From contig MKTZ01000002.1 of the NCBI GenBank assembly GCA_001898505.1, forward strand, positions 108,445-172,444: a stretch of DNA of 64,000 bases, read 5' to 3'. Shown here piece by piece: positions 63,814 through 64,000 of this stretch. Under the pieces are notes generated by a model. The model was not told the DNA's origin, made no database searches, and saw only the letters and a list, made by a program, of their open reading frames with translations. Every line of letters begins with the position of its first letter. The stretch's first letter is position 1. The position numbers and the translations under genes were made by a program. This DNA is from Sphingobacteriales bacterium 50-39. Its GTDB lineage: Bacteria; Bacteroidota; Bacteroidia; Chitinophagales; Chitinophagaceae.

Positions 63814-63887
63814 CGGGACGTAGCGCAGCCCGGTAGCGCACTTGCATGGGGTGCAAGGGGTCGCTGGTTCGAATCCAGTCGTCCCGA
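63814..63887 (+). tRNA. tRNA-Pro (anticodon GGG)
   Basis: Folds as a full 74-base cloverleaf: acceptor CGGGACG/CGTCCCG, D stem GCGC/GCGC, anticodon stem CTTGC/GCAAG with loop ATGGGGT (anticodon GGG at 63848-63850), a 5-base variable loop, T stem GCTGG/CCAGT with loop TTCGAAT, discriminator A. The first C-G acceptor pair and G-rich anticodon fit proline. CCA is not encoded. It is followed by its own terminator. Confidence 0.95.
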
Positions 63888-63898
63888 CGAACAAGAAG

Positions 63899-63922
63899 CC
63901 CGCAGCGATAGCTGCGGGTTTT
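63899..63922 (+). terminator. Intrinsic terminator after tRNA-Pro
   Basis: Perfect 8-base arms CCCGCAGC and GCTGCGGG with a GATA loop, then TTTT. The group II intron begins 5 bases after this T run. Confidence 0.85.
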
Positions 63923-63927
63923 GCTTT

Positions 63928-64000
63928 GTGCGCCAGGCACGTCCATTAGCTCTAGGGTGGAAGTCCCGAACGAGCGAGGTAGTAAGAATCGTTAGCCGAA
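63928..64000 (+). mobile_element. Group II intron, 5' end (class C type), cut by window edge
   Basis: The sequence from 63928 starts with the group II 5' consensus GTGCGCC and continues with domain I elements: a GGCACG segment, then CTAGGGTGGAAGTCCCGAAC and later GTAAGAATCGTTAGCC. From memory, these align with the start of the Oceanobacillus iheyensis group IIC intron (the AGGGTGAGAGTCCCGAAC and GTTAGCC blocks). It lies directly behind the tRNA-Pro terminator, the target choice known for class C introns. The rest of the ribozyme and any reverse transcriptase gene are outside the window. Confidence 0.85.

What the first reader, a model, noticed from the sequence alone, without database searches (positions are those of the whole stretch)
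63899..64000. Group IIC-type intron seated behind a tRNA-Pro terminator
Seen: an intact tRNA-Pro(GGG), an 8-base-pair terminator with T tract, then GTGCGCC and domain I blocks typical of a group II intron, running off the window. Known: class C introns insert downstream of intrinsic terminator hairpins. Inference: the element used the tRNA terminator as its homing site, leaving tRNA expression intact. It is the only mobile element I can see in the window.
Basis: partly seen in the sequence, partly recalled or inferred. Interest (0 to 1): 0.72.

Follow-up and report, generated by a model that had tools for sequence, protein, structure and literature searches.

The report
Intron nested in tRNA-trailing folded repeat
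The window ends 73 bases into a self-splicing-type (group II) intron that sits directly behind a hairpin following a tRNA-Pro gene, an ordinary habit for its likely class, but the hairpin belongs to a roughly 150-base repeat, predicted to fold and likely mobile, that recurs behind tRNA genes of at least nine amino acids and often ends in a copy of that same tRNA's tail.

Summary
tRNA-Pro(GGG) at 63814-63888, hairpin at 63899-63918, TTTTGCTTT, then a group II intron 5' end from 63928, cut at 64000 by the end of contig C2. The same 5' end closes contig C21 (57 nt identical), and one 3' end opens both C9 and C20 (61 nt identical): I infer two copies whose bodies the assembly lost. Synteny assigns C20 to this site. 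A full-length sister copy on C16 (93% over the shared 5' end) carries Rfam D1-D4 and D5 matches and a 441-aa reverse transcriptase nearest GsI-IIC RT. All 17 five-prime ends of the family that I read follow a hairpin. So it is a likely class C intron in a typical site.

This family (36 of 37 model pairs with two-sided changes; no Rfam match in 20 loci scanned) occurs in 22 of 33 genus and 42 of 244 family genomes, behind tRNAs of nine amino acids; 24 of 36 genus loci end in a 15-17/17 copy of their own tRNA's 3' end. The units look like insertions that bring a replacement terminator. Their mobility and the enzyme that moves them are inferred.

The parts
63814..63888 (+). tRNA-Pro (GGG)
   Evidence: ARAGORN and Rfam tRNA 61 bits
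63872..63888 (+). last 17 nt of the tRNA gene; an identical 17-mer closes the unit on contig C20 (L076:175-191)
   Evidence: 17/17 at +169 in the joined site
63889..63927 (+). first 39 nt of the folded repeat unit; the rest is at L076:62-191 on contig C20, behind the intron 3' end (C20 assigned by synteny)
   Evidence: (C20 67.9 bits with model R1, of which the joined site is a seed)
63899..63918 (+). 8-bp hairpin, predicted terminator of tRNA-Pro
   Evidence: flagged on the minus strand only
63919..63927 (+). T-rich tail TTTTGCTTT, the last bases of the 5' exon (IBS1 by position)
63928..64000 (+). first 73 nt of a group II intron (likely class C), cut by the contig end

Best explanation
The window ends 73 bases into a group II intron, likely of class C, that lies directly behind a hairpin following tRNA-Pro(GGG), and this hairpin is the first arm of a roughly 150-base repeat unit, predicted to fold, that is likely itself an insertion between the tRNA and its original terminator. 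Intron step (inferred from the known behaviour of class C and from the junctions): the intron RNA with its reverse transcriptase, which has no endonuclease domain in the sister copy, would have recognised the hairpin and the short T-rich stretch behind it, reverse-spliced between GCTTT and TCCGG, and been copied into DNA. The joined flanks show no lost or duplicated bases as far as a T run allows (C20 assigned by synteny). Unit step (inferred): an enzyme, probably a tyrosine recombinase supplied in trans, would insert the unit at the 3' end of a tRNA gene, leaving the tRNA whole, repeating its last 17 bases at the far end of the unit, and supplying a new terminator as the unit's first hairpin. 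The result is one mobile element seated in another behind an intact tRNA gene.
For: Intron: 93% match of the stub to a full-length copy; RF02001 145.9 and RF00029 47.5 bits on that copy; RT TIGR04416 404 bits, RVT_1 plus GIIM only; PDB best hits GsI-IIC RT 2.6e-119 and the 7uim group II intron maturase 8.6e-109, against LtrA 6.6e-38. The same 5' end at two contig ends and the same 3' end at two contig starts. C20 assigned by homology to the uninterrupted region behind tRNA-Pro in relatives; C9 gave no match to the same 19 loci (alignment). Hairpin in front, judged by eye on printed sequence: 5 of 5 copies of the family in the genome (three of them with RF02001 hits), 8 of 8 in 5 named genomes, 4 of 4 five-prime ends in the rest of the genus, two of them from one genome. 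Unit: 36 of 37 pairs with changes on both sides, 95.4% of cells paired, 531 two-sided cells against a shuffled mean of 147; tRNA directly 5' in 22 of 30 genus loci and 16 of 17 loci from other genera; own tRNA 3'-end copy of 15/17 or more in 24 of 36 genus loci, while the 17-mers of other amino-acid isotypes never exceed 14; relatives with the tRNA but no unit; tandem units.
Against: The body of this intron copy is missing from the assembly, so its class rests on the sister copy. 12 of 36 genus loci and 8 of 16 loci from other genera lack a good tRNA-end copy. 7 of 30 genus loci have no tRNA found, some because an island or a contig end separates them. Units behind one tRNA type look most alike, so descent in place is possible. 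No enzyme was tied to the units. Some hairpins counted behind the tRNA-end copy are the next tandem unit and not a displaced native terminator.
Confidence: 0.75

Rival explanations
1. Plain class C intron behind the tRNA's own terminator; the folded sequence around it is only a long trailer RNA kept by descent and never mobile.
For: Units behind the same tRNA type look most alike, and the hairpin part is kept in shortened copies. A conserved fold fits a functional RNA.
Against: Relatives have the tRNA-Pro gene without a unit and with another hairpin (L080, L088, L091; upstream gene shared); tandem copies; copies of the specific tRNA's 3' end at the far side; found in only 42 of 244 family genomes, a lower bound because of strict filters.
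Confidence: 0.2
2. The units are the tRNA-side ends (attachment regions) of larger integrative islands, left behind when the islands are lost, not small elements that move on their own.
For: Tyrosine recombinase genes beside the units in L148 and L150 and an ORF that reads integrase-like to me beside a unit-like stretch in L183 (no Pfam hit, no R1 match); units parted from the tRNA by 2.0 and 6.4 kb with a tRNA-end fragment on the left (L146, L154).
Against: Tandem arrays of bare units (L152, L094, L155); many adjacent units show no island in the sequence read; units displaced by islands are also explained by later islands entering the same tRNA.
Confidence: 0.35
3. A group II intron of another class that lies behind the hairpin by chance.
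For: The stub is only 73 nt and has no Rfam hit of its own; the same genome also holds an intron of another model family for which I see no hairpin in front (C10, RF01999).
Against: 17 of 17 five-prime ends that I read sit behind hairpins, and the sister RT is nearest GsI-IIC RT.
Confidence: 0.03

Closest known systems
Bacterial class C (group IIC) introns
   Same: RT without endonuclease domain (sister copy), insertion right after intrinsic terminators (PMC4424553 and PMC8919778, passages seen), short T-rich 5' exon
   Different: Nothing in kind; the hairpin used here belongs to another repeat
Group IIC-attC introns (PMC4424553, passages)
   Same: A class C intron seated in a folded DNA structure that may serve recombination
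   Different: No attC model or integron search was run, so kinship of the unit with attC sites is untested
Integrative elements and islands at tRNA 3' ends (recalled)
   Same: Repeat of the tRNA 3' end at the far side, tRNA left whole, tandem accretion
   Different: About 150 nt, no gene, conserved fold, one architecture behind tRNAs of nine amino acids
REP/MITE-type palindromic repeats (recalled)
   Same: Short, gene-less, palindromic, multi-copy
   Different: Sits at tRNA 3' ends and repeats the tRNA tail

Membership tests
Bacterial class C group II intron | Ribozyme domains match group II models | tested here: met
   RF02001 and RF00029 on the sister copy L007; the window stub alone gives no hit
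Bacterial class C group II intron | RT/maturase nearest a IIC enzyme and without an endonuclease domain | tested here: met
   Sister copy only: (best PDB match GsI-IIC RT)
Bacterial class C group II intron | Insertion directly behind a terminator hairpin with a T-rich tail | tested here: met
   hairpin in 17 of 17 five-prime ends read by eye; the tail is short and less T-rich in L105 and L107; fold of the window hairpin
Bacterial class C group II intron | Domain V and exact 3' boundary of this copy | tested here: inconclusive
   3' end and boundary CTCGAT|T seen at the start of contig C20; the contig begins inside what aligns with domain V of the sister copy
Bacterial class C group II intron | IBS1-EBS1 pairing of this copy | not testable with these tools
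   Body not assembled; in sister copies IBS1 TTTTT/TTTTT/TAAT face loops AAAAG/AAAAA/ATTA (my reading)
tRNA-integrated element (for the unit) | Direct repeat of the target tRNA 3' end | tested here: met
   24 of 36 genus loci, 8 of 16 loci from other genera
tRNA-integrated element (for the unit) | Carries its own integrase | tested here: not met
   The unit is about 150 nt and has no room for a gene
Known Rfam RNA family (for the unit) | Reaches the gathering score of any family | tested here: not met
   in 20 loci only tRNAs and one fluoride riboswitch
Integron attC site (for the unit) | attC R and L boxes and an integron integrase nearby | not tested
   No attC model on hand

The most novel reading that the evidence does not exclude
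The units are a new class of gene-less mobile element: about 150 nt of folded DNA that jumps to the 3' ends of tRNA genes of many isotypes, duplicates the last 17 bases of each target tRNA, and pays its way by handing the tRNA a fresh terminator, which class C introns then use as a landing pad.
Probability: 0.4. Interest if true: 0.75.

Novelty: new variant of a known kind. Interest (0 to 1): 0.5.

Why it matters
The intron itself adds one more clean case to a known rule. The unit family would matter because tRNA 3' ends are common docking sites of bacterial islands (recalled): a small element that docks there, copies the tRNA tail and brings its own terminator would help explain how tRNA genes survive repeated insertions, and would show an element whose target preference spans many tRNAs.

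Tried and rejected
Assigning contig C9 as the 3' flank of the window's intron: rejected, no similarity to 19 relative loci around tRNA-Pro. Units in phages: the joined own unit has no match among 50,697 phage records. A 19-base right-end pattern found one viral contig, L183, but model R1 finds nothing in it. One alignment of two unit types aligned poorly and was not used further (A1). The test that the left arm of the right-end hairpin follows the tRNA T-stem was weak and is not claimed. Literature: for the units, searches showed no paper on them in the titles and abstract starts listed (15 of 251, 8 of 8, 15 of 24, 1 of 1 and 3 of 3 papers listed); only open-licence papers are held. For the intron, searches; I saw passages of two papers and no whole paper. 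Phylum-wide spread was not obtained.

Full report
Observation. The window is G000:C2:108445-172444 and its last base is the last base of the contig. tRNA-Pro(GGG) lies at 63814-63888, the hairpin CCCGCAGC-GATA-GCTGCGGG at 63899-63918, TTTTGCTTT at 63919-63927, and the intron starts GTGCGCC at 63928. The hairpin region folds at -22 kcal/mol, z -5.7. The simple terminator scan lists it only on the minus strand.

The intron. A DNA search of the window's own genome with the full sister copy gave 6 matches at 5 places: the full copy on C16, a truncated copy at C2:35890 (77%), one at C1:55214 in two pieces, the window stub, and a stub at the end of C21 that is identical to the window's over its 57 nt. 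Contig ends were then read for all 27 contigs. C9 and C20 begin in one and the same intron 3' end (61 nt identical), which differs from the C16 copy (about 73% over 62-71 nt). I infer that the genome holds two copies of one intron whose bodies were dropped by the assembler; that the two 5' ends and the two 3' ends belong to the same intron is part of this inference. Of the two 3' flanks, C20 continues with sequence similar to what follows tRNA-Pro in relatives (79% over 126 nt to L089, E 1.6e-25), while C9 gave no match to the same 19 loci. Joining the flanks gives GGGTTTTGCTTT|TCCGGGAGCG. It aligns around the join without a gap to four of five uninterrupted relatives; the fifth (G029) has one extra base in the T tract. 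One of the five sits behind tRNA-Pro(TGG).

Class. The C16 copy (L007, minus strand) carries RF02001 (145.9 bits) and RF00029 (47.5 bits) and a 441-aa protein that scores 404 bits with TIGR04416, has RVT_1 and GIIM and no other Pfam domain, and is nearest in the PDB to GsI-IIC RT and the 7uim maturase. Class C introns are described as inserting at intrinsic terminators (PMC4424553, passages; PMC8919778, passages). Here all five copies of the family found in the genome lie behind a hairpin; three of the five are long enough to give RF02001 hits. So do 8 of 8 copies matched by a 24-base pattern in 5 named genomes and 4 of 4 five-prime ends elsewhere in the genus (L099, L101, L105, L107; L105 and L107 are from one genome and have short, less T-rich tails). 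These were judged by eye on printed sequence, with RNA folds printed for the eight. In L158 my script set the 5' end 13 bases too far in; I read the site by eye. The C10 intron, which matches another model (RF01999), shows me no such hairpin. The introns are patchy: 6 of 33 genus genomes, the own one included.

What the hairpin belongs to. Relatives showed that the sequence behind tRNA-Pro is a unit of about 120 nt predicted to fold into a branched structure, followed by a short linker and a hairpin that ends in a copy of the tRNA's 3' end. The joined own site is 169 nt from the tRNA end to the end of the copy, predicted at -87 kcal/mol; a relative's unit has z -7.8. The window's terminator is this unit's first arm. 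A covariance model of five units (R1) found 144 matches in 22 of 33 genus genomes at E 0.01, some of them the same unit seen on the opposite strand, and matches in 42 of 244 family genomes, 26 of 101 genera, at E 1e-5 with stricter filters. The 42 include four genomes of the own genus.

Place of the units. Thirty of the 144 genus matches were returned as loci (mostly the best of each genome). A tRNA lies directly 5' in 22 of 30; in L137 it lies one unit further up; 7 have none found. Five of the 30 are seeds of the model (L113-L116, and L128, the own C20 piece, which begins after the tRNA); of the 25 others, 18 are adjacent. In other genera 16 of the 17 loci returned have a tRNA within about 13 nt. 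Over the adjacent tRNAs are Pro, Gln, Val, Leu, Ser, Arg, Glu, Cys and Lys. No Rfam family other than tRNA and one fluoride riboswitch matched in 20 of these loci.

The fold. On 56 distinct aligned matches, 36 of 37 model pairs show changes on both sides, 95.4% of cells pair (shuffled 67.1%), and sliding the partners by 1-3 columns drops this to 41-51%. The alignment was fitted to the model, which favours it, and it holds one opposite-strand match (L139); the margin is large.

The tRNA tail. In 24 of 36 tRNA-unit loci of the genus at least 15 of the last 17 bases of that tRNA recur 115-297 nt downstream; the 17-mers of tRNAs for other amino acids and scrambled 17-mers never scored above 14 there. 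The 36 are the 22 adjacent loci, nine, L004, L079, L094, L099 and the joined own site. Left out before the count: L137 (second unit of L119), the tRNA-Pro(CGG) of L142 and two tRNA-Gly genes (no adjacent unit), and the first tRNA of L145 (the same as L134). L004 was chosen by eye and gave no model match. In other genera 8 of 16 have such a copy. Behind the copy, 22 of 31 loci have a hairpin and T tract within 70 nt against 23.1% of 359 random stretches; 23 of these 31 were preselected for a good copy, and some of the hairpins are the next tandem unit. In the own locus the copy is followed by GAAACCCGCTACCAGAGCGGGTTTC and a T-rich stretch, similar to the hairpin directly behind tRNA-Pro in a relative without a unit (L091). 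My reading is that the unit was inserted between the tRNA and its native terminator.

Islands. Some units lie 1-6 kb from a tRNA, or have no tRNA found but a T-arm-like or tRNA-end-like left flank (L142, L143, L146, L147, L148, L150, L154). In L154 a 6.4-kb and in L146 a 2.0-kb stretch separates tRNA and displaced tail. Tyrosine recombinases (PF00589) lie beside units in L148 and L150, both in the own genome. This fits later islands entering the same tRNA ends, or units being island ends; I cannot decide between these.

A second nested case. In G001 an intron matching the first part of this family (86%) lies behind tRNA-Cys, a unit, a 16/17 copy of the tRNA-Cys tail and then a separate hairpin with seven Ts.

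Verdict. The intron is a new member of a known kind in its usual site. The unit family is the unexpected part: shown are its covarying predicted fold, its place behind many tRNAs and the tRNA-specific tail copies; inferred are its mobility, the enzyme and the terminator function.

Noticed in passing
G000:C2:172444 and G000:C21:298670; starts of C9 and C20: Four contig ends lie inside matching intron ends: the assembly probably broke at a two-copy intron and dropped its body.
   Followed up: yes
L099:1450-2060 (minus): Second nested case: tRNA-Cys, unit, copy of the tRNA-Cys tail, hairpin, intron 5' part of the same family.
   Followed up: partly
L152:2531-3228 (minus); L155:51-551 (minus); L094: Tandem arrays of bare units, three or more in a row, with the tRNA tail or a relic of it between them.
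   Followed up: partly
L142, L143, L144, L146, L154: Units spaced 1-6 kb apart on one strand with other genes between them, suggesting stacked islands at one tRNA.
   Followed up: partly
L183:4850-5500: A putative viral contig has a tRNA-Ser-like tail fragment followed by a unit-like stretch (no R1 match), next to a 587-aa ORF that reads integrase-like to me but has no Pfam hit.
   Followed up: partly
L160, L162, L163: Three copies of the same intron family in one MAG labelled Thermoanaerobacteraceae, far from the other, Bacteroidota-labelled hits: transfer, mis-binning or mislabelling.
   Followed up: no
L047:1390-2260: Truncated intron of the same family on the window's own contig: 5' part and the start of the RT gene; no 3' end was found.
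   Followed up: no
L048:1255-3074: A different group II intron (RF01999) in the same genome, with no hairpin that I can see in front.
   Followed up: no
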